Shown: in pieces, positions 1-47,776 of the stretch | How the letters are laid out: every line of letters begins with the position of its first letter | Position numbering within the stretch: the stretch's first letter is position 1 | Source: an uncultured Bacteroidales bacterium | Lineage (GTDB): Bacteria > Bacteroidota > Bacteroidia > Bacteroidales > Muribaculaceae | Reading direction: 5' to 3' | Assembly (NCBI GenBank): GCA_902792435.1 | Contig: CADAZN010000019.1 | Location: 1 to 47,776, forward strand | Length of the DNA: 47,776 nt | Notes under the pieces: generated by a model | Databases searched by the model: none | What the model saw: only the letters and a program-made list of their open reading frames with translations | Told to the model about the DNA's origin: nothing | Position numbers and translations under genes: made by a program

Positions 1-96
<96 letters not shown>

Positions 97-101
97 TAAT
101 G

Positions 102-20507: not shown

Positions 20508-22505
20508 TTATTTTACAATAACCTTCTTGCCGCCCACGATGTAGATTCCAGCGGGCAATCCTTGTGTGGCCTCGTTGCGCTCAACTTGCTTGCGCAGCAA
20601 CTGACCGTTCAAGTTATAAACATCGACTGGCCCGTCATTGATGCTGGCGTTGATGTCGCTCACACCAGTTGTAGTTCCCACAGCCACCGAGATTTCGTTG
20701 ATGAGGTGTGTTCTCTCGCTAGGCTCAACGGCGATGATGTTGTTGATTGTGATAAACTCATTGCCACCGAAGTCGTCGCCAGCTTTCACAATGATGTTGA
20801 GAATGTCACCTTCGTTGTCCTTCATTGCATTGCCGCTATGGATGAGAACTCTCCACTTGCCAGGCTCTATCTCGTTGAATCCCATTACCATGCCACTGGT
20901 GCGGCTAGTGGTAGTGACATTGTCAATCGAGAGACCTTGTGGCATTAACAAGTCGAGCTGCATTGCCGAGATCTCGGCAGAACTGTTGAGCTGCAGTTCC
21001 ATGTTGTGAGTCTCGCCAGTTTCAATGATGAAGTCTTGAGCATTCACCTTGTCGTTGCTGTCGTTGACCACTTGATTGCGGCCAGGAGCATTTCTGTTGC
21101 CAAGTAAGACGTTGTAGACTGCGGTGATGTCGGATGCAGTAATTTCACCGTCACCAGTCACGTCAGCAGTTTCCATATAGTCGGTTGACATGCCCAAGAG
21201 TATGTTATAGATAGCAGTAATGTCGGCTGCAGTAACAAATCCATCCTGGTTCACGTCGCCAAAGACGGGTTCTGGTCCATCCTCCCACTGAATGAGGAAG
21301 CGTGTCCACTGCAGAGCATTCATATAGGCTTCATGACTCTCTCTGGGAACGGTGAGAGGAATCGCGGGCTGCTTCACGCCAATCCACACCTCGTCGCCAA
21401 GCTCGGGCACCTCGGTTGCATCGCAAGAGAGCTCAAGAAGATTTATCATACCTGCCATTGCTCTATCGCCAATGAAGGTGAGAGTAGCTGGCAGTGATAA
21501 TTTGGATGGCAGAGAGTTGTAGAATGCATATCGTCCTATGTAGCTCACTTGAGTGTTGCTTGTCACATCATTGCCAACAGCAGTGCCAGCGAGCAACAGG
21601 TCGGCGATTGAGTCGGTTGCCTGGTTAGCAACAAAAGAAGTGAGGTCGGTAGCATAGTAGAATGCGCCTTTCTTCACTTGTGGGGTTGCCGCTAAGTTGG
21701 CGCTAACCTGCTTGGACTGTGCAAAAGCCCACTCGTCAACTTTTTGTAGACCAGATGCTTGCTCAAAATTGAAATCAGCCAACGCCGATCCCACAAAAGC
21801 TTCCTTTCCAATGTAAGTCAAGTTGTTGTTGCCGCTTGTGAAGTTGAGGCTGTTCAGTTGTGTTGTGCCTTTGAATGCTCTTTCACCAATTGAATTTACG
21901 TTGCCAAGGTTGACTGTGTTAAGATTGGAGCAATATTCAAAGGCGCTCTCAGGAATGTCAATGTTGTTAGTGGTAACGATAGTGGCACTTGTGAGGCTGG
22001 GAATATTGTAAAAGACTCCTTTTCCCAGATGCTTCAAGCCCTCGGGCAGCACAACTGTGCTCAGTTGCGTGTCGGAGAATGCATAGGCAGCAATAGAGTC
22101 GAGAGTCTCGGGGAAATTGAATTCAGCCAACGACTCACATCCAGCAAATGCAGCCATGCCTATCGACTTGAGGTTGGATGGAAGTGTCACTTGTGTTATT
22201 TTCTTGCCAAAGAAAGCCATGGCTGGTATAGAGTTCTCGGGGAACCTTACCTCATTGTTTAGCAAAGGCTTGTTGTTGCTGTAGACCACAATCTCCACAC
22301 CGCTCAGGTTGATGCTTGTGAGTAGCTCGAGCTTATCGGCGATAAACTTGAAATCTCGTGCATCCATTTGACCGGTGATAGTTAATGCTTCCACACGAGG
22401 GTTGTCAACGAGATTGCTGAGGTTGCCAGGTGTGCATTCCACAACATCTGCCCAACTTATTAATGCGCTAGCCATTAGGGCTATAGAGAGCAAGAATTTC
22501 TTCAT
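20508..22505 (-). CDS. Secreted BspA-like LRR protein with dockerin-like domain and T9SS sorting domain (paralogue)
   Basis: 665 residues with a signal peptide (MKKFLLSIALMASALISWA). Same domain order as its downstream neighbour: LRR_5 repeats (AFAGCESLAEFNF, AFEYCSNLNTVNL, AFKGTTQLNSLNF), a VPELGDEVWIGVKQ cap, a two-loop dockerin-like domain (GDVNQDGFVTAADITAIYNILLG, DVTGDGEITASDITAVYNVLLG), a cohesin-like beta region (MQLDLLMPQGLSI), and a T9SS sorting domain ending GLPAGIYIVGGKKVIVK. The two proteins arose by tandem duplication, with the ends closest at DNA level. No convincing promoter was found in the 199-bp gap shared with the rightward small gene. Confidence 0.88.
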   Translation of the reverse strand: MKKFLLSIALMASALISWADVVECTPGNLSNLVDNPRVEALTITGQMDARDFKFIADKLELLTSINLSGVEIVVYSNNKPLLNNEVRFPENSIPAMAFFGKKITQVTLPSNLKSIGMAAFAGCESLAEFNFPETLDSIAAYAFSDTQLSTVVLPEGLKHLGKGVFYNIPSLTSATIVTTNNIDIPESAFEYCSNLNTVNLGNVNSIGERAFKGTTQLNSLNFTSGNNNLTYIGKEAFVGSALADFNFEQASGLQKVDEWAFAQSKQVSANLAATPQVKKGAFYYATDLTSFVANQATDSIADLLLAGTAVGNDVTSNTQVSYIGRYAFYNSLPSKLSLPATLTFIGDRAMAGMINLLELSCDATEVPELGDEVWIGVKQPAIPLTVPRESHEAYMNALQWTRFLIQWEDGPEPVFGDVNQDGFVTAADITAIYNILLGMSTDYMETADVTGDGEITASDITAVYNVLLGNRNAPGRNQVVNDSNDKVNAQDFIIETGETHNMELQLNSSAEISAMQLDLLMPQGLSIDNVTTTSRTSGMVMGFNEIEPGKWRVLIHSGNAMKDNEGDILNIIVKAGDDFGGNEFITINNIIAVEPSERTHLINEISVAVGTTTGVSDINASINDGPVDVYNLNGQLLRKQVERNEATQGLPAGIYIVGGKKVIVK

Positions 22506-26791: not shown

Positions 26792-28087
26792 ATGGACAAT
26801 GCAAGCTCATCGGGCTTTGTGGTTGATTCGTTTGAGGGCGTTAACGACCACTTCACCTCGCTTAAGATACTAGAGAGTCACGGTCACAACGTGCTGGCTC
26901 GTGCCAAGCGTTTTGGACGGTGGTATCTGCTCAAAGGACTTGCTCCCAAGGAGTCGCAACAGGCGTCATATCACGAGATGCTGGTTAAGGAATTTGACAT
27001 TATGATGCGATTGCAACACCTTGGTATTGTGCAGACTGTGGGTTTAGAAGACGTAGATGGAATGGGCAAGTGCATAGTGATGGAATGGGTCGAAGGCATA
27101 ACACTTGCCGAGTGGCTCAAAGGTCAGCACACGCGAGAAGAGCGTCAACAGGTGGCAAGTCAGCTGATGGATGCTCTGGCTCACATCCATCAGCATGGTG
27201 TGGTGCACCGTGATATCAAACCTAGCAATATCATGATTACCACCAACGGACAGCAAGTGAAGATTATTGACTTTGGGCTCGCCGACACCGATGTGCATGC
27301 CACACTCAAGCAACCCGCAGGCACCCATAGCTACATGGCACCCGAGCAGGCACAGGCAGATGCGCCCGATGTGCGCAACGATATTTACAGCTTGGGACTG
27401 GTGCTAGAACAATTGCAACTCGGCCAACTCTACAAGAACCCTATAGCTCGTTGCCTTATGCCCATCGATAAGCGATATCAGAGTATTGCTCAACTCAAGG
27501 AAGATATTGAGCGCAGCAAGCATCGCCGACGAATGATGAAGCTGGTTGGTTTTGCCATTGGAGTCTCGCTAGTGATTGCTGGCATCATGTTAGGATTGGG
27601 ATATGCTGGGCGTAAGAAACTTGAAGAACCCTCTGGGAGATTTGAGTTTAAGGATGCTTTAGGATTTGTCTATACTAATTGGGATAATGGCTACACACTC
27701 AATGTGTCAGTACAATATACTGGTCGTGGTATTAAGAATGTTACATTGCAGCAAGAGCAGCGATTCGTTAATCGCAGTTGGAACGTTAGTGAGCTGGGCT
27801 TCGGCTGTTTCCGAAATCATTCTGAAATACAGAATATCACAATTTATAGTACAAGTTTTGGCATTCAAAAAAACTCTTTTAAAGGCTGCACAAATTTGAG
27901 GAGCATAACGATGCCAAATCTTATGGCTGTACCCGATATGGGCAGTGGCGGCTGGCAAACGGTTATTGACTCCATCTTTGAACCAGAACATTTTGAGAAT
28001 GTGACGCTCTATGTCCCCATTGTGGAGGAGATGAAGCGCGACTCATCGTGGTGTAAGTTCAAGCACATTGAGCCTTTATCAAAATAA
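26792..28087 (+). CDS. Transmembrane Ser/Thr protein kinase with BspA-like ectodomain
   Basis: 431 residues. An N-terminal Hanks-type kinase domain (residues ~20-245) has Lys48 (YLLKG), the probable alpha-C Glu67, HRDIKPSN with Asp141 and Asn146, DFG at 160-162 and APE at 183-185, so it should be active. The glycine-rich loop is atypical (no GxGxxG) and the C-lobe is short. One membrane segment (about 250-272) follows KHRRRMMK. The outer part (273-431) has LRR_5-like pieces (CFRNHSEIQNITIYS, SFKGCTNLRSITMPN) and a cap, so the kinase domain is cytoplasmic and the sensor periplasmic. The ligand is unknown. It follows the HTH-like gene by 106 bp with its own promoter. Confidence 0.88.
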   Translation: MDNASSSGFVVDSFEGVNDHFTSLKILESHGHNVLARAKRFGRWYLLKGLAPKESQQASYHEMLVKEFDIMMRLQHLGIVQTVGLEDVDGMGKCIVMEWVEGITLAEWLKGQHTREERQQVASQLMDALAHIHQHGVVHRDIKPSNIMITTNGQQVKIIDFGLADTDVHATLKQPAGTHSYMAPEQAQADAPDVRNDIYSLGLVLEQLQLGQLYKNPIARCLMPIDKRYQSIAQLKEDIERSKHRRRMMKLVGFAIGVSLVIAGIMLGLGYAGRKKLEEPSGRFEFKDALGFVYTNWDNGYTLNVSVQYTGRGIKNVTLQQEQRFVNRSWNVSELGFGCFRNHSEIQNITIYSTSFGIQKNSFKGCTNLRSITMPNLMAVPDMGSGGWQTVIDSIFEPEHFENVTLYVPIVEEMKRDSSWCKFKHIEPLSK

Positions 28088-30869: not shown

Positions 30870-33800
30870 TTATTGGTATTGTGGGTCGTCGGCGATGACA
30901 AGAGTTCTGATTGGCGTGCTGCCATAGTTCTGCCCGTCGTTGTACTTACCGTAGAACTTGTATACACCTGGTGGCAATTTTTTGTTCCCAACCTTGAGGT
31001 TCCAGTCAAAGGGGAAAGATTGTTGTGTTTTGTGCCACCTCATAACGCCGTTATAATCAAATAGTTTGATTTCAACTTCGGGTGTGGATTCTAGAATTGA
31101 AGAGAAATTGAAAGTTGCAACTCTAGTTGCTGGTTCTTGTTCTACTGTGAGTGCTGCGTGTTGTACTGATCCCACTAAGAAAAAGATGTTTTTAGTAGTT
31201 TTGTTACCTGCGACATCATAGAGTGTGCATTGCAGAGAATGCTCACCTGGAGTTAGGTCCATGGGCAGGTGTAAAAACAGGTCCTTGCCATTATTGCTAA
31301 CTGAAGTGTAAGACTGCACGTTAGGAATACTCATCTTGCCATTGTCGATTGTGATCTCCATTCCGTTTCCTATGGCTGAAGTCTGACTGTTGATGGCAAT
31401 ATCGTCGGTTGCTTTGATAAACAGCGTGGATGAAGGTGATGCCTGACTGTACATGTCAAATAATTCCTCGTCGTCAAAATAGATGGCGTCGATAGATGGG
31501 GGAGTGTTGTCTCTCACTGTGTTAGAGCTGTTCTCATTATAGGAATTAATAATGAGATTGTCGTAACTGCCGTTAACCATTTCATCGCTATTGTCGCGGT
31601 GTGCATAAACAGTTACCAGACCTTTGGCTCCTGGGCTAAGAATGAATCGTGGAATTATTGCTTTAGCAACGAACTTGCCATTGACAACCCTGCCATTGAT
31701 TTGCGTGAGAATTTGTCTCGGGAAGAAGATGTCTCGGTTATTTTCGGTCACTTCTTTCTTTTGATAGTCGTAGATGGTGAGGGTGGCATCGCCATTGAAT
31801 GTTTTGTCAATTTCAGTTGAATTTGGGAGAAGAACGTTGGCCTCGACTGTTGTTTCCTGCATTGCTGTGGCAACTATATAGTCGGGATTTGGCGTTTGGT
31901 TGTTGATTTTAGTGATAGAGAAGAGTGGTTTAGGATAATTAACCTTTATGGCTGGGTCTCCCAAGAGTGAGAACATCATCTTGTTGTAGTTGGATGTGGT
32001 CCCAAATGATTGTTTAGCAAGCTTGTAGGCTTCGCCAATAGTTGGCAGGTATCCTTTTGTGTCATAGCAGAACATTGCTCTCACGAAGGCCTTGTTAAGT
32101 GCGTCGTTACCGTTGGCATAGGCTGCACGAGTCGAAGCCATCATGGCAATAGCTCCTCCGTTTGGATTATGGAACAAAACTTCCATCAAGCCACGTTGGT
32201 TGCCATCATATCGAGCTACATCGCAGCAAGCTGTTGTGACGATGGGCAGATGCTGATTGTTAGCATTTTTAGAGTCGATGGTGGTCCAGAGGTTAGCGGT
32301 TTTAGTGAGAGTTGTTCCGTTGGCATGTCCTACGTAGGTCATAAAGTATTGTCCAGCCTGAAGTTCTAAATTAAGGCTTCTTCGTCCTTCAACACAATGG
32401 TTGGAAATTGGGTCTCTAGGAAATTGTGAAATGAAAACTTTGTTTCTTGCAAACTTAGCATTTAGCTCGTCGTAGATGACATTTCCTACGCCTTCGGCTT
32501 GATAGGCGTGCATGTTTGAGTCACTAGCGAGATAGTCGGCTATTAAAAGGATGTTATTTCTCCATGGTCCATAGTCGGGATTGTTGACATAGTTGATGAT
32601 TTTGTCAACATCGCTCTCGGCTTCGGTGAGCGTTGTACAAGGGATGCGTCCAATCTCCAGCCTTAGCATGTCGGATGCTGGACTTTTTCCAGAGTTGTCA
32701 TCTAGTAGCCCGAAAAAGTCGTCGCATACATAGCTGCTGTTTTCATCGTTACTAGCGGTAGACTCATAGGTTAGGATAGCGTAGTCGTTCTTGGCAAGTA
32801 TTTGCCTGTTGTCATAACTGCCGGCACCAAACATGATAAGGTACTTAAACTTGGAATTGTTGTCTCGGTCATAGAACATCTTGTTCATGAGCCTTATGGC
32901 CATAGCGTCGGGGGTTCCGCTAGAGAATTCGTTGAAGATTTTCTGTTGGTCGAGAACGTGTACCGTCATTTTCTCTTTGTCTCGATGCAATTGCGCTAAT
33001 CTCTGTGCCTGAGCCATGAGTTTGTCGCAAGTGACAATCACCATGTCAGGAATAGGTAATGCATGAATGTTCTGGTTTGCGACAGGCTCAAATCCATCGA
33101 TAGATTTCAGCTCCTTAGCAGGGTCAAATGCTATGAACTGAGTCCAACTGGCAAGGTAGAGAGGGGTGAATGCACCATAGTTTTCCCTATAGTTTAACGT
33201 GTAGTTCTTTGGCGTTTGTGGGTTGTCGATATTCCACAACTCAGTGGTCGTAGTAGGGCTATTTATGGCAATGATGTCGGTCGATGAGACATTGTCAAAT
33301 CCCATCCTCATTTGGTTGAAAGGAATATCCTTGATATTGTTGTAGTGGTGGTAGGTGAGCATAATATAGTCAAGCTTTGCCCACTTGACAGGCTCATTGG
33401 GAGTGTCGAGCCCGATAGTAAGGGTGCCATTTTCGGGGAAAGCCGAATTGTTCTCAGGGTCCACCTTGATGCTGGGTGAAGTTGAGTTGTAGAACACATA
33501 TTCCGAAGTAGCTTTTTCTATATAATGAAGAACGCCGCTCAGGTCGATAGTGTTATTGTTTAATTTTAAAGATACATAAGAATTGCTTTTACCCTTAGCC
33601 GCCACACAAGGGTTGATAATCATTGCGGAGTCGACACAAGGTTTCACGAGTGAGTAGTTGATGTCGAGGGTGTTGTTTATCAAATCCTCACCCAGCATGT
33701 CTTTACCCGATTGTGATTTGGAAGTCAAATCTTGCTCGTGATGGAAGTAGTCGATGCTTGAATCTCTCAATTTTGTACCGGTGATTCCATAGGTGATGTT

Positions 33801-34259
33801 GCTTGGCTCTACTTTAGGCGTGCCGTCGTCGCTAGTTATGAAATAATAGGCCGTTGATGAGTAGCTATTGATTATTCTAGAAAATCGTGGTGATGACTGT
33901 GCTCCTGCTGCGTTGTAGTAGTGGATAGGTCCACATCCATAGAAATAAATTTTGTTTCCATAGTGCTTGCAGGGAACAGGCACGAGGTCATCGTGAGCAC
34001 TCCCGTCAAGGGTCTCGCTAATGGGGTGTCCTCCTGAGCCATACAGTCGCACACTGCGTGGATTGTTAAACCCCATTTGTGCCAGTTCTTCGTAAGTGAT
34101 TTGATACATTCCATCTTCATGAATGGCTATTTTCACCCAATTGCCTGTGGCTAGCCTGGATGTGGTGGCAAACGTGTTTGCCGGTAGTGCACGAGCAGTC
34201 ACTGGCGTAATAACCATTAATAAAAGGTTGATAGCAAAAAATAGCGTTTTTTTATACAT
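30870..34259 (-). CDS. PorU-like C25 cysteine peptidase (third paralogue)
   Basis: 1129 residues with a signal peptide (MYKKTLFFAINLLLMVITPVTARA). The N-terminal region (RLATGNWVKIAIHEDGMYQITYEELAQMG) is the PorU N-domain. The C25 catalytic dyad is kept: His645 in TYVGHANG and Cys679 in TTACCDVARYD. C-terminal beta domains end in a FlgD-like segment (FPFDWNLKVGNKKLPPGVYKFYGKY). PorU is the T9SS sortase that removes cargo sorting domains at the outer membrane. This gene is closest to the second paralogue at 34483 and less like the canonical copy at 39315, so its job may differ. It is monocistronic, bounded by hairpins. Confidence 0.82.
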   Translation of the reverse strand: MYKKTLFFAINLLLMVITPVTARALPANTFATTSRLATGNWVKIAIHEDGMYQITYEELAQMGFNNPRSVRLYGSGGHPISETLDGSAHDDLVPVPCKHYGNKIYFYGCGPIHYYNAAGAQSSPRFSRIINSYSSTAYYFITSDDGTPKVEPSNITYGITGTKLRDSSIDYFHHEQDLTSKSQSGKDMLGEDLINNTLDINYSLVKPCVDSAMIINPCVAAKGKSNSYVSLKLNNNTIDLSGVLHYIEKATSEYVFYNSTSPSIKVDPENNSAFPENGTLTIGLDTPNEPVKWAKLDYIMLTYHHYNNIKDIPFNQMRMGFDNVSSTDIIAINSPTTTTELWNIDNPQTPKNYTLNYRENYGAFTPLYLASWTQFIAFDPAKELKSIDGFEPVANQNIHALPIPDMVIVTCDKLMAQAQRLAQLHRDKEKMTVHVLDQQKIFNEFSSGTPDAMAIRLMNKMFYDRDNNSKFKYLIMFGAGSYDNRQILAKNDYAILTYESTASNDENSSYVCDDFFGLLDDNSGKSPASDMLRLEIGRIPCTTLTEAESDVDKIINYVNNPDYGPWRNNILLIADYLASDSNMHAYQAEGVGNVIYDELNAKFARNKVFISQFPRDPISNHCVEGRRSLNLELQAGQYFMTYVGHANGTTLTKTANLWTTIDSKNANNQHLPIVTTACCDVARYDGNQRGLMEVLFHNPNGGAIAMMASTRAAYANGNDALNKAFVRAMFCYDTKGYLPTIGEAYKLAKQSFGTTSNYNKMMFSLLGDPAIKVNYPKPLFSITKINNQTPNPDYIVATAMQETTVEANVLLPNSTEIDKTFNGDATLTIYDYQKKEVTENNRDIFFPRQILTQINGRVVNGKFVAKAIIPRFILSPGAKGLVTVYAHRDNSDEMVNGSYDNLIINSYNENSSNTVRDNTPPSIDAIYFDDEELFDMYSQASPSSTLFIKATDDIAINSQTSAIGNGMEITIDNGKMSIPNVQSYTSVSNNGKDLFLHLPMDLTPGEHSLQCTLYDVAGNKTTKNIFFLVGSVQHAALTVEQEPATRVATFNFSSILESTPEVEIKLFDYNGVMRWHKTQQSFPFDWNLKVGNKKLPPGVYKFYGKYNDGQNYGSTPIRTLVIADDPQYQ

Positions 34260-34382
34260 GATGAAAATAGATATTGTAAGAAGTGTGTTTTTAATATTTA
34301 TAGTATGTCTAATATATAATAACGTGAAAAGAATAGTTTTTATTGTTTAGGTAATTTGTTTAATGCTCCTGTTGGTAAGACG

Positions 34383-34426
34383 AAAAACACCGCACATGAG
34401 TCTTGGTTTTCACGTGCGGTGTTTTA
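34383..34426 (-). terminator. Rho-independent terminator of the second PorU-like gene
   Basis: A perfect 12-bp stem (AAAACACCGCAC / GTGCGGTGTTTT) with an 18-nt loop that may add pairs is followed on the minus strand by a T run (TTTTTCG). It lies about 60 bases past the stop codon. Confidence 0.8.
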
Positions 34427-34482
34427 GTGTGTGTCAGCTTTTATAAAACTACTGGTTTACAAGGTGTAAATCAACGAGTTGA

Positions 34483-37400
34483 TTATTCGTCATTGTTATT
34501 ATAAGGATCGATGACGATTAGCTGGCCAATAGGTGTACCTCCATAGGTTGTAGCGCTCCTATAGGTTCCATAGAACTTGTAGACTCCCGCTGGCACTCTG
34601 TTGCCACTGTTGTCCTTGAGGTCCCAAGAGAATGGGAAGCTGTCGGTAGTAGTGTTCCAGATGAGCTCGCCCACATTGTTGAGCACCTTGATAGTTACCT
34701 GAGGTGTGCTGGAAGTAGTCGAGCTAACATTGAAAGTTGCCTCGTTAACAGCAGGTTCTTCTTCAACCAAGAGCTCGAGTTTTGAGTCATTGCCTACAAG
34801 GAAAGAAATTGTCTCGGTCGTTTTGTTTCCAGCTGCATCATACACGGTGTATTGTAGCGTGTGCTTTCCTTCTTGAAGCTGCATTGGGAACTCAATGCTG
34901 AGGTCCTTGCCATCATTAGTTATAGCCGTGTGGTTCTGGATAAAGGGGTAAGAAGTCTTACCTCCATCAAGAAGCAGGCTCATGGTGTTGCCCAGCGACA
35001 CCGACTGGTTGTTGAAAGAATGGTCGTCGGTAGCACGGATGTGAAGAGTGCTTTCGGCAGGGATTAGTGCACCATTGGTGAACGACTGCTCATCGTTGAA
35101 ATAGATGGCGTCAATCACAGGAGGCATGTTGTCGTGCACAGTGTGTGGATTGTTCTCGTTGTAGTAATCAAGCCTTAATAAGTCGAACGACCCATTAACC
35201 ATGTTCTCGCTGTCGTCTTGGTGAGCATAAACCTTGACCATGCCGTAGTTTCCTGTTGAGAGGATGTAGCGTGGAATGACTGCCGTGGCATTGAAGACGC
35301 CGTTGACAACTCTTCCGCTAACCTTGGTCAGCAGGTTTTGAGGGAAGAAGATGTCGCGGGTGACGTCAACTCGGTTAACACGCACGGTGAGAGTTGTCTC
35401 CTTGAGCTTGTAGTCATAGATTGAAAGAGTTGCATCGCCGTTGAAGCTGGTGTTGACTGTTGTGCCATCGGGGTTGTAGACCTTGGCCTCGACCGCTACC
35501 TCCTGCATAGCACCTGAAACAATGGGTGACGATGGGTTCACGTCGGTGCCATTGATTTTGGTGATTTTGAAGAATGGTTTTGGATAATTAACCCGCATGG
35601 CTGGATCACCAAGCAACAAAAATGACATCTTGTTATAGTTAACCTTAGTTGAACCAAACGACTGCTTGCAAAGCATATAGGCTTCGCCAATAGTAGGCAT
35701 GTAACCCTTGGTGTTGTAGCAGAACATCGCTCTTACAAACGCTTGGTTTAGCGCGTCGTTATCGGTGGCATATACTGAGCGTGCCGAGGTGACAATAGCG
35801 ATGGCACCACCACCAGGCTTGTGGAACATAATTTCAACCAATCCTCGCTGGTTGCAGTCGTAGCGAGCCACGTCACAGCAGGCAGTGGTGAGAATTGGGA
35901 GGTGTGGATACTCAACGTTGTTAGATTGGCTGGTGGTCCATAGTTTTACCTGCTTGGTGAGATAGTTCTGGTTGCCGTGTCCCACATAGGTCATGAAATA
36001 TTGTCCATCGGTGAGCTTGGCAGTAAGCTCCTTGCGTGCATCAAAGGCGAAACCCGAAACGGGGTCATTGGGGTACTGGCTGATGTACACCTTGTTGTTC
36101 ATTAGTCCAGTAGCAAGTTCGTCAACGATGATGTTGTTGATGCCTTCGGTTTGGAACGCGTGCAATCCATTATCATAGTCATCGGCGGTGAGAATCACAT
36201 CGTTGCGCCAAGAACCATAGTCGGGGTTATTGACATAATCGAGAAGCTTGTCGACATCGCTCTCGGCTTCTTGGAGAGTAGCACAAGGTATGCGTCCCAC
36301 TCCGAGCCTGAGGAGGTCCTTGGCAAGCTCAATTCCTGAGTTGTCGTCGAGGATGCCGAAGAAGTCGTCGCACACATAGCTGTACTCCTCATCATTGCTG
36401 ACGGTGGCCTCGTAGGTGAGGATTGTGCAATTGCGCTTGGCGTGCAGCTGACGGTTGTCGTAGTTGCCAGCTCCAAACATGAGCAGGTTTTTGTATTTGT
36501 TCCTGTTTCGGTCAAAGAACATCTTGCTCATAAGGCGGATTCCCATGGCGTCGGGGGTGCCACTAGAGAACTCGTTAAAGATTTTCTGTTGGTCGAGAAC
36601 GTGCACAACCATGTTGTCGTTGTCGCGGTGCATCTGTGCCACGCGCTCGGCTTGTGGCAAGAGCTCCTCGCAAGTGACAATAACCATGTCGGGGTCGGGG
36701 AGTCCGTGGATGTTCTGATTCTCGATTTCGGTGTATCCAGAAATTGATTTGAGCTCGTTGGCAGGGTTGAAAGCTATGTATTGGCCCGAGTTTGCTGCCA
36801 CATTAGGAGCATAACCCATCACTCCATTGTTAGAGCTAAGCACGCAATTGGTTGGGGAGTGGGGGTTGTCGATGTTCCAGAGCTGATAGTCGTCGCCCTC
36901 ATCGGCAAATGTGATGATGTCATTTTTTGTAAGCTTCTGGAAACCCATGCGTAGCTGGTTGTCGGTAGAGCCCGCAAGGGTGTTGTTGTGATAGAACGTG
37001 ATTGTCACATAGTCGAGCCAAGCGCTTGTTACATCGCCTGTCTCGCTGCCAATTCTCACGTTGATAATTCCATCGGTGTACATTGGGGTATTCTCAGTAG
37101 GCGAGAATGCCACGTAAGGTGAGGCATAATTGTAGTAAACGAAGGTGTTGGCTGGGGCATAAATCTTGGCAGCGATGTTCTGGAAGTTCAGGCTATTGCC
37201 GTTGAGCTTGCCGTAGATGTAGGATGCTGCGGTGACTTTAGCACCTGCGTTGATATTCACCACTACCGAAGTGTCGGTGCACAAGGTGGGGATAGAGTAG
37301 GGGATATCGATAACACCGCCTGTCATAGCTTCACCAAGCATTTCTTTACCCGACTCTCCTGGCGAGATAAGCTCTTGCTCATGATGCCAGTAGTCGAGAC

Positions 37401-37905
37401 TTTGTGCCCTTGTAACAGGAGAGCTAGGATTAGCACTATAGCTATCGGCAACTATCGCTGGGTCGGAGCCATCGTCCTGAGTTACAAAATAGTATCCCTT
37501 TGTTGAATAGCTATTGAATTCTCTTGTGTAGTGTGGCGTGCCAGTGGGAGTAGAGAGACTGAATTTGGTCGTTCCACATCCATAAAAGCAGATTTTATTG
37601 TCATAGATTTTGACAGGAATCTGCTGCAGGTCATCGATTTGTGACCCATCAAGCACTTCGCTTATGGGATAACCGCCCAAGCCATAAATTCTCACTCCCT
37701 CTGGATTGGTGAAGCCCATCTGCGCTAATTCTTCGAAAGTGAGCTGATAAATGCCGCTCTCGGGAATCTCTATTTTGACCCACTTGCCACTAGCCAGCTT
37801 GGAAGTGCGAGTGTAGTTGGCCGAAGAGTATGCCTGTGCGCCAAACGTTGTGGCAGCAACGATAGCCAGTAGGCTCAAAATGTTGAATAAAAACTTCTTA
37901 TGCAT
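34483..37905 (-). CDS. PorU-like C25 cysteine peptidase (second paralogue)
   Basis: 1140 residues with a signal peptide (MHKKFLFNILSLLAIVAATTFGAQA). Domain order is the same as in the neighbour at 30870: N-domain (KLASGKWVKIEIPESGIYQLTFEELAQMG), C25 peptidase with His643 in TYVGHGNQ and Cys677 in TTACCDVARYD, then beta domains and a FlgD-like end (FPFSWDLKDNSGNRVPAGVYKFY). The stretch VLDQQKIFNEFSSGTPDA is shared with the third paralogue, which points to a tandem duplication. It starts 34 bp after the FAH-like gene and ends in a strong terminator, so it is the last gene of a rex - FAH-like - PorU-like operon. Confidence 0.82.
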   Translation of the reverse strand: MHKKFLFNILSLLAIVAATTFGAQAYSSANYTRTSKLASGKWVKIEIPESGIYQLTFEELAQMGFTNPEGVRIYGLGGYPISEVLDGSQIDDLQQIPVKIYDNKICFYGCGTTKFSLSTPTGTPHYTREFNSYSTKGYYFVTQDDGSDPAIVADSYSANPSSPVTRAQSLDYWHHEQELISPGESGKEMLGEAMTGGVIDIPYSIPTLCTDTSVVVNINAGAKVTAASYIYGKLNGNSLNFQNIAAKIYAPANTFVYYNYASPYVAFSPTENTPMYTDGIINVRIGSETGDVTSAWLDYVTITFYHNNTLAGSTDNQLRMGFQKLTKNDIITFADEGDDYQLWNIDNPHSPTNCVLSSNNGVMGYAPNVAANSGQYIAFNPANELKSISGYTEIENQNIHGLPDPDMVIVTCEELLPQAERVAQMHRDNDNMVVHVLDQQKIFNEFSSGTPDAMGIRLMSKMFFDRNRNKYKNLLMFGAGNYDNRQLHAKRNCTILTYEATVSNDEEYSYVCDDFFGILDDNSGIELAKDLLRLGVGRIPCATLQEAESDVDKLLDYVNNPDYGSWRNDVILTADDYDNGLHAFQTEGINNIIVDELATGLMNNKVYISQYPNDPVSGFAFDARKELTAKLTDGQYFMTYVGHGNQNYLTKQVKLWTTSQSNNVEYPHLPILTTACCDVARYDCNQRGLVEIMFHKPGGGAIAIVTSARSVYATDNDALNQAFVRAMFCYNTKGYMPTIGEAYMLCKQSFGSTKVNYNKMSFLLLGDPAMRVNYPKPFFKITKINGTDVNPSSPIVSGAMQEVAVEAKVYNPDGTTVNTSFNGDATLSIYDYKLKETTLTVRVNRVDVTRDIFFPQNLLTKVSGRVVNGVFNATAVIPRYILSTGNYGMVKVYAHQDDSENMVNGSFDLLRLDYYNENNPHTVHDNMPPVIDAIYFNDEQSFTNGALIPAESTLHIRATDDHSFNNQSVSLGNTMSLLLDGGKTSYPFIQNHTAITNDGKDLSIEFPMQLQEGKHTLQYTVYDAAGNKTTETISFLVGNDSKLELLVEEEPAVNEATFNVSSTTSSTPQVTIKVLNNVGELIWNTTTDSFPFSWDLKDNSGNRVPAGVYKFYGTYRSATTYGGTPIGQLIVIDPYNNNDE

Positions 37906-37939
37906 ATCGATTGAAATTATTGTTTTTCTTTTTAAAAAG

Positions 37940-38521
37940 TCATTTCACTCTAATAGTAAGCAGTTGCGATTGGTTGCAAAGGGCGTTTATTACATCTCCA
38001 ATCTTGATATTGAATTCATCACTGTTGAGTTCCACCAGAATCACGTCGCCCATTTTGAGCGTGAAGTACTTGCTGATGTGCTCTATCAGTTGCTTGAAAT
38101 CAACTCCTGTAGAAGTCAACGAAGCGCCTGCTTTAACTTCACCATTATATTTGACACTTATGGTCGAGTCGTTGATGGTGTTGTTGCTGTCGACGGGGAT
38201 GAAATCTCCCAAGAGCAGTGCTCCGTCGAAGCTGTTGGCTAAAGCCGAAAGCTGTTCATTCTCCTGCTTATAATCTATTTCTTGTGCCGTGACTTTAATT
38301 GCTGGTGCTATGGCCATGCAGTAACGGTGTGCAAAGCGTTGAGCAATGTGCTTTCCAAGTCGGTCGATGTGAAGAGCAATCGACGCCTTGGCCTTAAAGC
38401 CCTGAGCAAAATGTGGTAAGAAGAACGGCTTGTTGGTCTTTATCACCGCCGAGTCGGCGATGAGATAGACTTGCTGAGGCAGCTCTCTGCCGTTACCGTT
38501 TCTAATACCTATTATTTTCAC
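37940..38521 (-). CDS. Degenerate fumarylacetoacetate-hydrolase-fold protein
   Basis: 193 residues, about the size of small FAH-family proteins. The FAH pattern is recognisable: an N-terminal KPFFLPHFAQ, IDRLGKHIAQRFAHRY, then FDGALLLGDFIPVD, YFTLKMGDVILVE and a final IGDVINAL. The metal and substrate residues are changed. The usual acidic ExE on the first strand is replaced by KAKASIALHI, the Asp of TARD is in TAQEID, and the GTP-G loop is absent (VELNSDEFNI). It is therefore probably not an active FAH hydrolase. It overlaps rex by four bases and precedes the PorU-like gene. Confidence 0.7.
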   Translation of the reverse strand: MKIIGIRNGNGRELPQQVYLIADSAVIKTNKPFFLPHFAQGFKAKASIALHIDRLGKHIAQRFAHRYCMAIAPAIKVTAQEIDYKQENEQLSALANSFDGALLLGDFIPVDSNNTINDSTISVKYNGEVKAGASLTSTGVDFKQLIEHISKYFTLKMGDVILVELNSDEFNIKIGDVINALCNQSQLLTIRVK

Positions 38522-39201
38522 TTGTTTAGAGTGTTATTGTTGTTATTAGCGTTAGCTTCCATGCGGTTGTACATGATAGCTAAGTCAGAGTAAATTGAAG
38601 TGTTCTGCAGCACGATGTTGCGTGGCACCTTGATGCGGTAAGGGGTGAAGTTCCAAATTGCCTTTATGTTGCTCTCCACTAGCTTGTTGGCAACATCTTG
38701 AGCGTTCTCAAATGGAACGGCGATAATGGCAATTGACACCCCAGTACTACGTTGCTTGGCAGGAAGCTCATCGAGGTTGTAGATGTTGATGTCGCCCATC
38801 TTCTTGCCCACGATATCGGGGTTTATGTCAAAACCTGCAACGATGTTGAGACCAAATTGCATAAGTCCCAAGTCACGAATTAGCGCGCTTCCTAGTGATC
38901 CTGCACCTATCAAGAAAGCGTTGTGGCGATGCTTGAAACCGAGGAACTCATTAAGAGCCTTGGTGAGCGGATGCACCTCATATCCAATGCGTGTTTTACC
39001 CTTGATGTTGAGGAACGAGAGGTCTTTGGCAATTTGTGAAGCATCAACGTTAAGGCGCTTGGCAATTTGGGTTGACGAGACATACTCTTCGTGCCTGCTG
39101 TCGAGCATTTTGACATAGGCAAGATACCAGGGCAACCTTCTTAGGGTTGGTTCTGGTAGCATATTGTTAGATATATGTCGCGAGTTTTCGCTTGTTGCCA
39201 T
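38518..39201 (-). CDS. rex: Redox-sensing transcriptional repressor Rex
   Basis: 227 residues. Rex represses respiratory and fermentation genes when NADH/NAD+ is low. An N-terminal winged helix (residues ~15-85, PEPTLRRLPWYLAYVKML and YVSSTQIAKRLNVDASQIAKDLS) is followed by a Rossmann domain with GAGSLGSAL and FDINPDIVGKK. The C-terminal domain-swapped helix region IYSDLAIMYNRME ends in an Asn-rich tail (NANNNNN). Its stop overlaps the FAH-like start (ATGA). Transcription may start in the 113-bp gap to the first PorU gene. Confidence 0.95.
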   Translation of the reverse strand: MATSENSRHISNNMLPEPTLRRLPWYLAYVKMLDSRHEEYVSSTQIAKRLNVDASQIAKDLSFLNIKGKTRIGYEVHPLTKALNEFLGFKHRHNAFLIGAGSLGSALIRDLGLMQFGLNIVAGFDINPDIVGKKMGDINIYNLDELPAKQRSTGVSIAIIAVPFENAQDVANKLVESNIKAIWNFTPYRIKVPRNIVLQNTSIYSDLAIMYNRMEANANNNNNTLNK

Positions 39202-39238
39202 AAAAATGAAAACCTTTTAATAGATGCAATCCAAACTG

Positions 39239-39273
39239 CAAATGTAGTAAAAAATATTATTTCGGTTCACAAA
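39239..39273 (-). promoter_or_regulatory. Putative promoter of the rex operon
   Basis: On the minus strand TTTG (39273-39270), a 23-bp spacer and TACATTTG (39246-39239). The -7 box is exact, but the spacer is longer than the usual 19-20. An autoregulatory Rex site was not identified. Confidence 0.4.
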
Positions 39274-39314
39274 TGTGAGGGTAAAACTTATTAAATCATA
39301 TCTTTATCAACCTG

Positions 39315-42300
39315 TTAAAGTGATGTGATAGCAATCTTCTTTGTTTTCGTACTCTCTTGGTGCCCATCGGTTGATATGGTTGCTCGGTAGAGGTAAATGC
39401 CTCGTGGCAGCCTGCGTCCGCCATAGTCGCACAGGTCCCAAGTAATGGGGAAAGAAGAGAACATTGTGCTTCGTCCACTCTGCGTTGTGCTCCACATGCG
39501 CTGTCCCATGAGATTGAACACCTCGATGGTGATGCTGATAGTAGCTTCGGGTCGGTTGTGTGTTACGATGAAGCTAGTGGTTGTTGCCGCAGGGTTGGGG
39601 AAGGCTTTTATTTCGTCAATCTCGGGCTTGAGTCCACTCACCACGTTGAAATTGATGGTCTTCTCGCTGGAGTTGTTGAACACGTCCCACACTTTGAGTT
39701 TGAGGGTGTGGTGCCCGTTGCTTAGGTTAGATAACCCATAGTTGATGTTGCCAGCAGACCCTTTTTCGGTCTCGATGGCAGTGTAATAGGAGCTGACGTC
39801 GCTGAAGGTGATGTTGCCGTCGAGAGTTAGTGTCATGTTGTGCCCGATACCGGCATTGGAGAAGTTAATACCATTCTCATCACTCACTGTGGCAAGCAGC
39901 AGCGGCGACTCGTTGACGTTGTCTCCATCCTTGAAGCTGGAGCTATTAAGTCCCATGTAAATGATTTCAGGGCCGATGGTGTCGGCAACCACTGTCTCAT
40001 CATATCCGTAGATGTAGAAGTCGTCGCAAGAACCAGTGGCCTCGACCTTGTTGTCGGGGTCGTAGGCATAAAGGCTCACCAGCGAAGGACGATAGTTGTC
40101 GTAGCTTACAGTAACCTCGCTGGGAATGGTTATGTTGATGTCAAACTCGCCGTTGGTAACTCGGTTGACGTTTAGAGCTAATTTATTTTGTCTCTCTTCG
40201 TAGGTGAGAGTGGAGTCTCTCTGTTCGAACTGATCGGTTTGAGGATTATAATAGTTGTAGCTGTAGGTAAACGAAACAGATTTCTCGCAGTCGAAAAGCG
40301 AACTCTCAATCAATCCGTTGAATGCCGAGGCTTTGGTGCCATTCATATCCTCGATGTGACCTTTGATCGACATGGTTTGTCGAGCTTCGAAGACTGGCAT
40401 GTCGTCCTGGTCGATGCCTTTGCCGTTGATTTGGTCGATAACAGCGTTGTATTGTGGCATAGCGGGTCGCATAGCAGGGTCGCCATAGAGGTGGTACCTG
40501 AGCGAATTGTCGCGACTTGTGGTGGTAGTGTTTTTGGCATAGAGCAAAATGTCTCCAATGCGCATCACTTGTCCCTTGTTGTCGCGTTCATACATTTTCT
40601 TGGCCGCTGTTACGTTGAGATATTTGTTGCTTCCCATGTAAACGAGTCGTGGTGGACAAATCATTGCGACACATCCACCGTTAGGATTCAAAAGCACGTT
40701 CTCACCACCCGAGGGGTTGATTCCGTCGTGTCTTGAGAACTCGCATGTAGCAGCAAACAGAATTGGCTGGTGGCTATAGAAGAGGTTGTTCTCAATATCG
40801 CTTGTTACCAAGAGTCCATCGCCAGTCCATCCCGAGGGTCCACCGTGTCCCGAGTAGTTCCACCATAGCGCTCCCTCGGTTAATGTTTTATACATTTTCT
40901 TGCGAGCATCGGGGAATTTAGAACCAGAGCCATCACTTTTTTCCTCAAAGTTGTCGAGGAACACTCGGTTGAAGTTGGTATTCTCGCCGCCGTGTGCTGC
41001 AACAGTTTGTATAACTTCCTCACCATGTCTCCAGTGTGCCGCTCCGTCTTCGTTGTCGGCCACGTTGAGCATAGTGTTTTTCCAGTTTCCATAGTCGGCT
41101 TGAGTAATATATTTTGTTATTTTGCTCACAGCGATGCTGGCGCTGGTTGCGCTTCTTGCGGGAATTCGGCCGATGGCGATTTGCATCATCTTATTGTCGC
41201 CTAGGTAGGAATCGTCTTTCAAATAGCCGAAGAAGTCGTCGGAGGTGTAAGACTTCATTTCATCTTCGCTGGCAGTGCTCTCCCACACAAGTAGAGTAGG
41301 ATAGTTTATTGCTCGGCCAGTAGTTGTAATGAGCCTGTTGTCGCAATATCCGGTGCCAAAGAGCAGCAGATAGCCAAGATGGTGTCCCTGGCTGTCGGTT
41401 CCTCGCTCGTAGAAATACTTGCAGAGGAGTCGGTAGGCCGATGCGTCGGGAGTACCACTAGAGAACTCGTTGAACACCTTGTTGTGGTCGAGAACCATCA
41501 CCCTCATGCTGTCGACCGACTCATGAAGGCTGGCTAGCTGGTTAGCCTGAGGAAGAAACTCGCTTGGGGCGAGGATAATCATGTCGGGGATGTCGCTTCC
41601 GTGAATGCTCTGGTTGTCGATAGAAGACACGTATGATGGTGTTGGGAAACTGGAGTTGTCGTTGAAAGCTATTAAATCGCGTTGATTCTTGTCAGGGAAG
41701 CTGAATCTCACCTTGTTGCCCTCGGCACTCAGGTTTATTTCGATGGGTGTGGTCTTGCTGGTTACATCCCACACATGTGTGTTGTCGTTAGCACCGCTGA
41801 GCTCATACTGGATTCCCTGGTTTTCTCGAAGCGAGAAAGCAAGGCTGCTCTTTCCTGACATGTCGAGATAGCGCTGATAGTTGACAGTGATATAGTCGAG
41901 GCGTGCCATGATGAGGTTGCTGCCCGGAGTGAAAGCTACCGTGTAGGTTAGGTCTTTGGTTCCATTAAGAGCGAAAGTTTTGCGCACACTAGCAATGTTG
42001 TAGTGATAGTGGGCAGGGTCGCTTTCGCTCACCTTGTCAATACTTTGTGTTCCGGCAATGTTGGTGCCGTTGTATTTAAATGATAATGAGCTTGCCGATT
42101 TGAGAGTTTTTGCTGCAAATCGAGTGTAGACATCAACCTCCGACTCATTGACCAGACCGTCGAGAGTGAACTTGAAGTTCTGAGAGTTGCTGGTGGAGAA
42201 ATCCTCACCGAGAATCACCCTTCCCGTCTCGCCGGGGTTGATGATTTCCTCCTCATGATAAAGATGCTCGGTGAAAGTGTTTACTACAGTGCCGCTGGGC

Positions 42301-42782
42301 TCGGTGAAAGAATTGCTGAGTGTCAGTTCGTTATAACGAGAGTCGTCGGTGATGAAATAGTAGCCTTGTGTTGCGTAGGGGTGCTGGCTCTGAACATACA
42401 TGCGCTGAAAAATATTCCAGTTCCAAGATAATGGTCCTCGCGCATAGAAAAGAATGCGGTCGCCTGTGCGCAGCACGGGAACTTGTGGCAGGTCATCGAC
42501 ATAATAATTGGTTCGCAGCGTGTCGTTGATTTGTGTGCCTCCATATCCAAACACTCTCACTCGGCTGAGGTCGTTGAAACCCCATTTGCTAGCATCGCTT
42601 GAGGTGATTTGATAGATGCCACTCTCGCTCACTGCTACTTTCACCCACTTGCCAGTGGCAAGTTTAGAAGTATCGGCATATTGCGACAGGTCAAGAGCCG
42701 AAGCTGCTAGCGCGGCGCATGACATGACCGCTAGAATAATTAATCTTGAAAAAACTGATATGTTGTTGTCGTTATGAATCAT
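39315..42782 (-). CDS. porU: Type IX secretion system sortase PorU (canonical copy)
   Basis: 1155 residues with a signal peptide (hydrophobic stretch ending SCAALAASA). Domain order: N-domain with KLATGKWVKVAVSESGIYQI, an unstructured-linker/beta region, C25 peptidase with His646 in YSGHGGPSGWTGDG and Cys680 in AATCEFSRHDG, further beta domains, and a FlgD-like end (FPITWDLCDYGGRRLPRGIYLYRATI). The GHGGPSGW and ATCEFSRHD forms are those I associate with PorU. It cleaves the sorting domain from T9SS cargo and transfers the cargo to lipopolysaccharide anchors at the outer face of the outer membrane. Lipid-anchoring PorV was not seen nearby. It is divergent from gldE. Confidence 0.85.
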   Translation of the reverse strand: MIHNDNNISVFSRLIILAVMSCAALAASALDLSQYADTSKLATGKWVKVAVSESGIYQITSSDASKWGFNDLSRVRVFGYGGTQINDTLRTNYYVDDLPQVPVLRTGDRILFYARGPLSWNWNIFQRMYVQSQHPYATQGYYFITDDSRYNELTLSNSFTEPSGTVVNTFTEHLYHEEEIINPGETGRVILGEDFSTSNSQNFKFTLDGLVNESEVDVYTRFAAKTLKSASSLSFKYNGTNIAGTQSIDKVSESDPAHYHYNIASVRKTFALNGTKDLTYTVAFTPGSNLIMARLDYITVNYQRYLDMSGKSSLAFSLRENQGIQYELSGANDNTHVWDVTSKTTPIEINLSAEGNKVRFSFPDKNQRDLIAFNDNSSFPTPSYVSSIDNQSIHGSDIPDMIILAPSEFLPQANQLASLHESVDSMRVMVLDHNKVFNEFSSGTPDASAYRLLCKYFYERGTDSQGHHLGYLLLFGTGYCDNRLITTTGRAINYPTLLVWESTASEDEMKSYTSDDFFGYLKDDSYLGDNKMMQIAIGRIPARSATSASIAVSKITKYITQADYGNWKNTMLNVADNEDGAAHWRHGEEVIQTVAAHGGENTNFNRVFLDNFEEKSDGSGSKFPDARKKMYKTLTEGALWWNYSGHGGPSGWTGDGLLVTSDIENNLFYSHQPILFAATCEFSRHDGINPSGGENVLLNPNGGCVAMICPPRLVYMGSNKYLNVTAAKKMYERDNKGQVMRIGDILLYAKNTTTTSRDNSLRYHLYGDPAMRPAMPQYNAVIDQINGKGIDQDDMPVFEARQTMSIKGHIEDMNGTKASAFNGLIESSLFDCEKSVSFTYSYNYYNPQTDQFEQRDSTLTYEERQNKLALNVNRVTNGEFDINITIPSEVTVSYDNYRPSLVSLYAYDPDNKVEATGSCDDFYIYGYDETVVADTIGPEIIYMGLNSSSFKDGDNVNESPLLLATVSDENGINFSNAGIGHNMTLTLDGNITFSDVSSYYTAIETEKGSAGNINYGLSNLSNGHHTLKLKVWDVFNNSSEKTINFNVVSGLKPEIDEIKAFPNPAATTTSFIVTHNRPEATISITIEVFNLMGQRMWSTTQSGRSTMFSSFPITWDLCDYGGRRLPRGIYLYRATISTDGHQESTKTKKIAITSL

Positions 42783-43093: not shown

Positions 43094-44470
43094 TTGATTT
43101 TGGATCCTGACCCTTTATCTTGTATTTTAATTTATGCGGCAAACTTGCTGCAGTCACAAACCTCACTATCGGCTATTAGCTTCACTGCGCCCGATTTGGG
43201 CTGCTGGATAGCCATTGCAATCGCACTTATTGGACTTTTGTTCTCGGCGTTCAACTCGGGCTCCGAGATAGCCTATTTTTCATTGTCGAATAAGGATATT
43301 GAAAGCATCGAAGAAGACTACAAGCGCGAGCGAGTGGAACACTTGCTTGCAAAGCCTGAGCGATTGCTCGCCACCATCTTGATAGGCAATAACTTGGTTA
43401 ATATCATGATAGTGATATTGCTCAACTATGCCATGAATGGGATGTTGGGTGATGATTTCAAGGCTGATCATCCTATTGCCAACTTCTTGATTCAGACCGT
43501 AATCCTTACCTTCTTAATCTTGCTCTTTGGCGAGGTGATACCCAAGCTTTATGCTACAAATAACAACGTGCGTTTCGCGACATTTGCAGCTTCTCCCATG
43601 CAGGTGCTATCGACCATATTCAGCCCCATTTCAAGGCTGATGATTAAGAGTATGGGATTTGTGAAAAAGGCCGTGGGGACCCATGCCGACGAGATTTCTA
43701 CCGAGGACCTAACTAACGCCCTGCAGATGAGCGATGTAAAGAGCGCCGACGAGAAAGACTGGCTTGAGGGTATCTTGACTTTTGGCGACAAGACAGTGAG
43801 CGAGATTATGACCCCTCGCATCGACATTGTCGACATAGATATAGAGGAAAGCTTCGAGGATGTGATAAAGATAATCGTTGATAACGGTTATTCACGAATG
43901 CCCGTCTATGAGGATAATCCCGATAATATAAAAGGCGTGCTTTATGCCAAGGATATATTGCCCTATTTGAATCAGCCGAGCGATGATTTCAAGTGGCAGA
44001 AGCTTTTGCGTCCTGTGTATTTTGTGCCTGAGTCACGCATGATTGACGACCTTCTCGAGGATTTCCGCAAGAAGAAGATACATCTGGCCGTTGTGGTCGA
44101 TGAGTTTGGCTGCACACAAGGCCTTGCCACAATGGAAGATGTGCTTGAGGAGATTGTAGGCGACATCGACGATGAGTATGATACCGAGGAGAAGTTCTAC
44201 ACAAAGGAGAATGATGACACCTTTATCTTCGACGCCAAGACATCGATTGCCGACTTCCTTGACGTGACCGATGTTGATGAACGTCACTTCTCGAAATATA
44301 CCGACGAGGCCGAAAGTATTGCTGGCCTGCTGCTTAATATCAAGGGCGATTTCCTCAACGAGAAGGAGCAACTGTCGTGTGGCCCTTGCGACTTCACAGT
44401 GTTGAAAGTGAAGAAGTACCGCATCGCCAAGGTGAAAGTTCACATCAATAGAGGTGAGAAAGAAGAGTGA
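43094..44470 (+). CDS. gldE: GldE-like CBS-domain membrane protein (CorC/CNNM type)
   Basis: 458 residues. The N-terminal ~200 residues form a DUF21/CNNM membrane domain (hydrophobic stretches near 36-55, 100-120 and 130-150, with SGSEIAYFSLS and FGEVIPKLYA). Two CBS domains follow (IMTPRIDIVDIDI, VDNGYSRMPVYEDNPDNIKGVLYAKDILP, IHLAVVVDEFGCTQGLATMEDVLEEIVGD), then a CorC_HlyC domain. The family is linked to divalent-ion transport, and GldE to gliding/T9SS function. The start is TTG: a stop codon lies four codons upstream and the first in-frame ATG is past 100 residues, within the membrane domain. Confidence 0.88.
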   Translation: MILDPDPLSCILIYAANLLQSQTSLSAISFTAPDLGCWIAIAIALIGLLFSAFNSGSEIAYFSLSNKDIESIEEDYKRERVEHLLAKPERLLATILIGNNLVNIMIVILLNYAMNGMLGDDFKADHPIANFLIQTVILTFLILLFGEVIPKLYATNNNVRFATFAASPMQVLSTIFSPISRLMIKSMGFVKKAVGTHADEISTEDLTNALQMSDVKSADEKDWLEGILTFGDKTVSEIMTPRIDIVDIDIEESFEDVIKIIVDNGYSRMPVYEDNPDNIKGVLYAKDILPYLNQPSDDFKWQKLLRPVYFVPESRMIDDLLEDFRKKKIHLAVVVDEFGCTQGLATMEDVLEEIVGDIDDEYDTEEKFYTKENDDTFIFDAKTSIADFLDVTDVDERHFSKYTDEAESIAGLLLNIKGDFLNEKEQLSCGPCDFTVLKVKKYRIAKVKVHINRGEKEE

Positions 44471-47439: not shown

Positions 47440-47776
47440 TTACTTAACCACAACTTTCTTGTTGCCCACGATGTAGATGCCGCGTGGCAGGTTGAAAGTT
47501 GCCTCGCCAGCCTTGACATTCTCACGGATGAGCTGTCCCTGAACGTTGTAGACGTTCACGATGGTGTTGTAGGCATCCATGTCGATAGTTCCAATGGCTG
47601 TTGGAGCATCGGGCAAGCGCAGAGCGTAGCCAATGTAGTTCTGGAAGTCGTAGACATAATCCTTAGGCATGATGCCAGCTGGAGTGTGCCAAGCCTCCTT
47701 GATGTTCATGGCGCAGCGAATCTCATATTTCTTGCCATTCTGCAAGGTGTTGCTAGCAGCGCCCCAAGAGGTGTCG
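47440..47776 (-). CDS. C-terminal end of a T9SS-secreted protein (5' part outside the window)
   Basis: The frame stays open to the window edge (reading DTSWGAASNTLQNGKK at the right end), so the visible 111 residues are only the C terminus. The end, VYNVQGQLIRENVKAGEATFNLPRGIYIVGNKKVVVK, is a type A T9SS sorting domain like those at 18480 and 20508. The preceding ~55 residues (RCAMNIKEAWHTPAGIMPKDYVYDFQNYIGYALRLPD) do not show a family I recognise. The protein should be exported by T9SS and processed by PorU. Confidence 0.8.
   Translation of the reverse strand, partial: DTSWGAASNTLQNGKKYEIRCAMNIKEAWHTPAGIMPKDYVYDFQNYIGYALRLPDAPTAIGTIDMDAYNTIVNVYNVQGQLIRENVKAGEATFNLPRGIYIVGNKKVVVK

What the first reader, a model, noticed from the sequence alone, without database searches (positions are those of the whole stretch)
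30870..42782. Three PorU-like sortases in one locus
Three genes of 1129, 1140 and 1155 codons share the PorU N-domain, a C25 domain with His/Cys at 645/679, 643/677 and 646/680 (always 34 apart), and a FlgD-like end. The copy at 39315 has the GHGGPSGW/ATCEFSRHD form; the other two share TTACCDVARYD and VLDQQKIFNEFSSGTPDA and look like a later tandem duplication. One PorU per genome is the usual picture in T9SS bacteria, so two extra active-site-intact versions could be sortases with different cargo or peptidases of another role.
Basis: partly seen in the sequence, partly recalled or inferred. Interest (0 to 1): 0.72.

Follow-up and report, generated by a model that had tools for sequence, protein, structure and literature searches.

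The report
PorU sortase array in rumen Bacteroidales
A gut bacterium carries three intact relatives of PorU, the enzyme that cuts and attaches secreted proteins at the cell surface: one ordinary copy, one old divergent copy that holds the original place of the gene, and a younger duplicate of the latter; the arrangement is common in its relatives and its purpose is not known.

Summary
The three genes are real and lie as described. All exceed NCBI's cut-off for T9SS sortase PorU and keep the His/Cys pair; models of c1 and c2 match crystal PorU along their length. They are the only C25 genes found in this genome, which has one SprA and one clear PorV. Trees show two PorU clades in the family: PorU-A (c3; conserved, the kind found in 7 of 7 single-copy genomes examined) and PorU-B (c2, c1; faster evolving, dispensable). 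c1 is a tandem duplicate of c2 within the window's sublineage; other sublineages built their own arrays, up to four PorU-B. Gene order adds a twist: in other Bacteroidales families PorU sits before porV, often after rex-faa, and PorU-B, not PorU-A, holds that place. PorU-B keeps its catalytic half as conserved as PorU-A, but its C-terminal half drifted and most genus copies lost the last-strand lysine of the T9SS signal. Best reading: sub-functionalised second sortases; substrates untested. Three or more C25 genes occur in 47 of 61 genomes of the genus, so the trio is no oddity of this genome; my paper searches found no description of it.

The parts
39315..42782 (-). c3, PorU-A: conserved T9SS sortase PorU (His646 codon 40845-40847, Cys680 codon 40743-40745)
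   Evidence: NF033707 941 bits against cut-off 420; 571 bits to crystal PorU 6za2; PorU-A clade
34483..37905 (-). c2, PorU-B1: divergent PorU in the place after rex-faa (His643 codon 35977-35979, Cys677 codon 35875-35877)
   Evidence: NF033707 715 bits; model pLDDT 90.6, Foldseek to 6za2_B E 9.8e-72; PorU-B clade
30870..34259 (-). c1, PorU-B2: tandem duplicate of c2, fastest changing of the three (His645 codon 32325-32327, Cys679 codon 32223-32225)
   Evidence: NF033707 687 bits; model pLDDT 89.0, Foldseek to 6za2_B E 4.7e-68; identity to orthologues lower than for c2 and c3 in 91 of 91 pairs
37940..38521 (-). fumarylacetoacetate-hydrolase-family gene (faa), 34 bp before c2
   Evidence: PF01557 66.5 bits; gaps
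38518..39201 (-). rex, redox-sensing repressor; overlaps faa by 4 bp, starts 113 bp after c3
   Evidence: NF003994 287 bits against cut-off 130; gaps
43094..44470 (+). gldE, divergent neighbour 311 bp from c3
   Evidence: TIGR03520 480 bits against cut-off 376

Best explanation
This is a PorU array. An ancestral porU in the order rex-faa-porU-porV was duplicated. PorU-A (c3), now upstream of rex, stayed the housekeeping T9SS signal peptidase and sortase. PorU-B (c2), in the old place, stayed catalytic but diverged, mostly in its C-terminal half, and in this genus was copied in tandem (c1). Proposed working (inferred): all three pass the inner membrane by Sec and the outer membrane by the T9SS; PorU-A cleaves most cargo C-terminal domains and joins cargo to a surface glycan; PorU-B proteins do the same chemistry on a subset of cargo or with another acceptor, sharing the single PorV with altered docking. 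Shown here: family, fold, intact dyad, two clades, tandem origin, gene order, constraint. Inferred: surface location, sortase chemistry, substrate division.
For: All three over the NCBIfam PorU cut-off, 687/715/941 bits against 420. c2 and c1 models match PorU 6za2 first by far, RgpB next at E about 1e-17. His/Cys kept in 100 of 100 rows of a broad set, including 35 of 35 PorU-B, and 63 of 63 PorU-B of the genus. Catalytic half equally conserved (columns at 90% or more: 121 of 385 in PorU-A, 120 of 385 in PorU-B), C-terminal part half as conserved (98 against 49 of 237). Purifying selection: dN/dS 0.05-0.14 for all three genes in the 6 pairs where it could be computed for all. One SprA and one clear PorV serve all copies. 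PorU-A is the copy in 7 of 7 examined single-C25 genomes.
Against: No activity, location or substrate is tested. No cargo class follows PorU-B: sorting-domain counts correlate weakly with C25 number (Spearman 0.28 over 118 genomes, not corrected for kinship), and in genus g20 genomes with one copy have 30-40 and with two 34-40. In 42 of 63 PorU-B of the genus the last-strand lysine column is neither K nor R, so normal export is not assured. A single duplication shared by three families is favoured but not proved: the careful tree gives 96/98 and 94/96, the rival family-own duplication is not rejected (p 0.167), and the larger quick tree put the f18/f99 rex-faa copies with the outgroup.
Confidence: 0.5

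Rival explanations
1. PorU-B proteins are secreted cysteine peptidases with another job (processing of other surface proteins, or food-protein breakdown), not parts of the attachment complex.
For: PorU-B is dispensable in the family, evolves faster (mean path 1.52 against 0.89 in the 44-row tree), has a changed T9SS tail and multiplies in tandem in several sublineages, as nutritional peptidases may.
Against: Whole-length PorU fold and PorU family score, and porV next to PorU-B in 13 of 20 PorU-B loci outside the genus and 4 of 4 in f18/f99.
Confidence: 0.2
2. PorU-B is a partner or regulator of PorU-A, for instance in mixed dimers. A review passage says that P. gingivalis PorU is inhibited on dimerisation, a hairpin of one monomer blocking the other (PMC10202324, passages seen).
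For: Conserved linkage of A and B around rex-faa; a second PorU-A copy with both active-site residues replaced is kept in two species, so a non-catalytic role exists nearby.
Against: A pure regulator needs no dyad, yet 63 of 63 genus PorU-B keep it. The hairpin was not located in these proteins.
Confidence: 0.15
3. Gene dosage or redundancy: extra copies only raise sortase capacity.
For: All copies intact and co-oriented; tandem arrays vary in number between close species.
Against: c1 and c2 are only 53% identical, the split is old, and c1 changes faster than c2 and c3 in 91 of 91 pairs.
Confidence: 0.1

Closest known systems
T9SS sortase PorU (NCBIfam NF033707; P. gingivalis PG0026, PDB 6za2)
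   Same: C25 domain with His/Cys dyad, whole-length fold, family score over cut-off, porU-porV order kept by PorU-B in relatives
   Different: three copies instead of one; c1/c2 lack the K of the last strand of the sorting domain, have acidic tails, and 30-53% identity to c3 and each other; porV is elsewhere in the window's genome
Putative PorU2 (NCBIfam NF052324)
   Same: also a second PorU-like family
   Different: c1 107 and c2 98 bits against a cut-off of 450, c3 no hit: not members
Gingipains (C25 peptidases RgpB, Kgp)
   Same: catalytic fold
   Different: Foldseek match much weaker (E 1e-13 to 1e-18) and only over the C25 and Ig part

Membership tests
T9SS sortase PorU | NCBIfam NF033707 score over the curated cut-off of 420 | tested here: met
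   687, 715, 941 bits
T9SS sortase PorU | catalytic His/Cys dyad | tested here: met
   present in c1, c2, c3 and in 100 of 100 rows
T9SS sortase PorU | PorU fold over the whole length | tested here: met
   c2 and c1 models align with 6za2 over 1181-1187 columns, E 9.8e-72 and 4.7e-68; global TM only about 0.5 and rmsd 15-18, so domain packing differs or is uncertain. c3 by sequence only
T9SS sortase PorU | own C-terminal sorting domain with the conserved last-strand lysine (PMC11285876, sections 6 and 7) | tested here: inconclusive
   c3 has it (PorU-A 33 of 33); c1 has T and c2 Q there by eye; PorU-B of the genus K in 15 and R in 6 of 63
T9SS sortase PorU | a T9SS in the same genome | tested here: met
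   SprA 2718 bits; PorV-family proteins 430 and 193 bits, cut-off 90
T9SS sortase PorU | cleaves sorting domains and transfers cargo to a surface glycan | not testable with these tools
   needs purified protein or mutants
Putative PorU2 (NF052324) | score over the curated cut-off of 450 | tested here: not met
   107, 98, no hit

The most novel reading that the evidence does not exclude
The array is a sortase repertoire: one general PorU plus expandable, sequence-diverse PorU-B enzymes that compete for one PorV and each anchor their own cargo set or use their own glycan acceptor, so that a T9SS gains specificity by multiplying its sortase, not its shuttle; the retained copies without a dyad in two species would be regulatory subunits of it.
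Probability: 0.2. Interest if true: 0.75.

Novelty: new variant of a known kind. Interest (0 to 1): 0.45.

Why it matters
The papers whose passages I saw treat PorU as one enzyme per T9SS. Here two ancient PorU clades coexist through a gut family, and one multiplies in tandem in a rumen genus. If PorU-B has its own substrates, how T9SS cargo is chosen for release or attachment becomes testable by comparing natural paralogues. It also warns that automatic names give all of these the same label.

Tried and rejected
Rejected: gingipain-type peptidases (Foldseek); NCBI PorU2; chance or assembly duplication (copies 53% and 31% identical; same order in 13 of 13 loci L033-L045 from other records, though these loci were fetched with c1/c2 patterns and so lean that way). 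dN/dS: dS near or above 1, so rough; window pairs could not be computed for c1 and c3. Promoter and terminator scans found no more than shuffles gave within error (25 against 19.7, sd 4.5; 14 against 13.3, sd 3.5). Rfam: only a 5S rRNA at the window's end. Plasmid search: one relative.

Full report
Observation. Between c2 and c3 lie faa and rex; gaps are c3-rex 113 bp, rex-faa overlap 4 bp, faa-c2 34 bp, c2-c1 223 bp, and gldE diverges 311 bp from c3. No other C25 gene was found in the genome. The genome has SprA (2718 bits), a PorV-family protein at 430 bits and one at 193 bits, which by recall would be PorQ, plus a 25-bit match below the cut-off. Sorting-domain searches gave 13 and 16 places, 19 together, c3 and weak ones included; five of the 16 match by construction.

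What the proteins are. All three pass NCBI's PorU model (687, 715, 941 bits, cut-off 420) and fail its PorU2 model. By sequence c2 and c3 find only PorU 6za2 in the PDB (362 and 571 bits). AlphaFold models of c2 (pLDDT 90.6) and c1 (89.0) match 6za2 first (E 9.8e-72 and 4.7e-68), RgpB next (E about 1e-17), though global TM is about 0.5. The dyad is kept in 100 of 100 rows of the broad set and in 94 of 96 rows of the genus set; the two exceptions are second PorU-A copies.

How common. In the genus 61 of 61 genomes have C25 matches: two in 14, three in 22, four in 11, five in 11, six in 2, seven in 1 (counted; fragments could be counted twice). In the family 118 of 118: one in 27, two in 61, three or more in 30. 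In the order 268 of 295, where other C25 peptidases are included. Named relatives (L033-L045) are mostly rumen MAGs titled Muribaculaceae, others Prevotellaceae, Porphyromonadaceae or Bacteroidales; I take the family to be Muribaculaceae by inference.

Tree. Quick trees of 124 and 100 rows part the family's proteins into PorU-A (c3) and PorU-B (c2, c1). c1 and c2 split inside the window's sublineage: 14 c1-like and 14 c2-like rows in two clades (99 and 97). Other sublineages show their own tandem copies, up to four PorU-B in L211 and L213. A careful tree of 44 chosen rows (LG+G4, no mixture) joins PorU-A with the before-rex copies of two other families, f18 and f99 (96/98), and PorU-B with their after-faa copies (94/96). 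Against this: the 100-row tree put those after-faa copies with the outgroup, and a family-own duplication is not rejected (p 0.167; the f18/f99-own one p 0.0385). PorU-B paths are longer: mean 1.52 against 0.89.

Gene order. Among the genes looked for, porV follows the C25 gene in 17 of 20 outgroup loci (5 of the 20 also with rex-faa before it), in 4 of 4 after-faa and 0 of 4 other copies of f18/f99, and in 13 of 20 PorU-B loci outside the window's genus; two of the seven misses (L108, L109) end just after the gene. In Parabacteroides distasonis the annotated order is rex, FAA hydrolase, porU, porV, ispF. So PorU-B holds the place of porU. In the window's genus porV has left: it follows in none of the 34 genus loci read (window, L033-L045, L211-L230; several of the last are two pieces of one cluster), and lies on contig C21 in the window's genome. 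Of 27 single-copy family genomes I looked at 7; all 7 carry PorU-A.

Constraint. Columns conserved in at least 90% of genus rows: residues 401-800, PorU-A 121 and PorU-B 120 of 385; residues 901-1155, 98 and 49 of 237. The lysine of the last strand, which a study of P. gingivalis sorting domains points to (PMC11285876; passages and sections 6-7 read), is K in 33 of 33 PorU-A and K in 15, R in 6 of 63 PorU-B of the genus; some PorU-B outside the genus, and the four after-faa copies of f18/f99, keep it. That study reports that replacing PorU's last six residues traps it in the periplasm while extension is tolerated. c1 is less conserved than c2 and c3 in 91 of 91 locus pairs (means 61, 72, 75%; one c1, L036, is cut at its end), and dN/dS is 0.05-0.14, highest for c1 in the 6 pairs computable.

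Literature. Searches turned up no paper in their listings on several PorU in one genome; I saw listings, plus passages of PMC11969387, PMC10202324, PMC7323717, PMC9477747, PMC11285876 and PMC5562754. The last reports a 1:1 PorU-PorV subcomplex with PorV perhaps in excess. Most subscription papers are not in the library, so absence in print is not shown.

Verdict.

Noticed in passing
L214:1844-5428 (-) and L216:3785-7228 (+): A second PorU-A copy in two genus members has both active-site residues replaced (Arg and Ala in place of His and Cys), yet is full length: a retained pseudo-sortase.
   Followed up: partly
window 18483-20492 and 20511-22505 (-): Two tandem BspA-type LRR proteins with dockerin domain and a short T9SS tail: likely cargo.
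   Followed up: partly
window 26792-28087 (+): Protein-kinase domain joined to an LRR_5 stretch.
   Followed up: no
window 47440-47745 (-): Short sorting-domain piece at the contig end; a similar 111-aa frame lies at the start of contig C53 of the same genome.
   Followed up: no
window 1-97 (+): 5S rRNA cut by the contig end.
   Followed up: no
L231: P. distasonis rex-faa-porU-porV lies on a 388 kb record labelled plasmid; the label looks doubtful to me.
   Followed up: no
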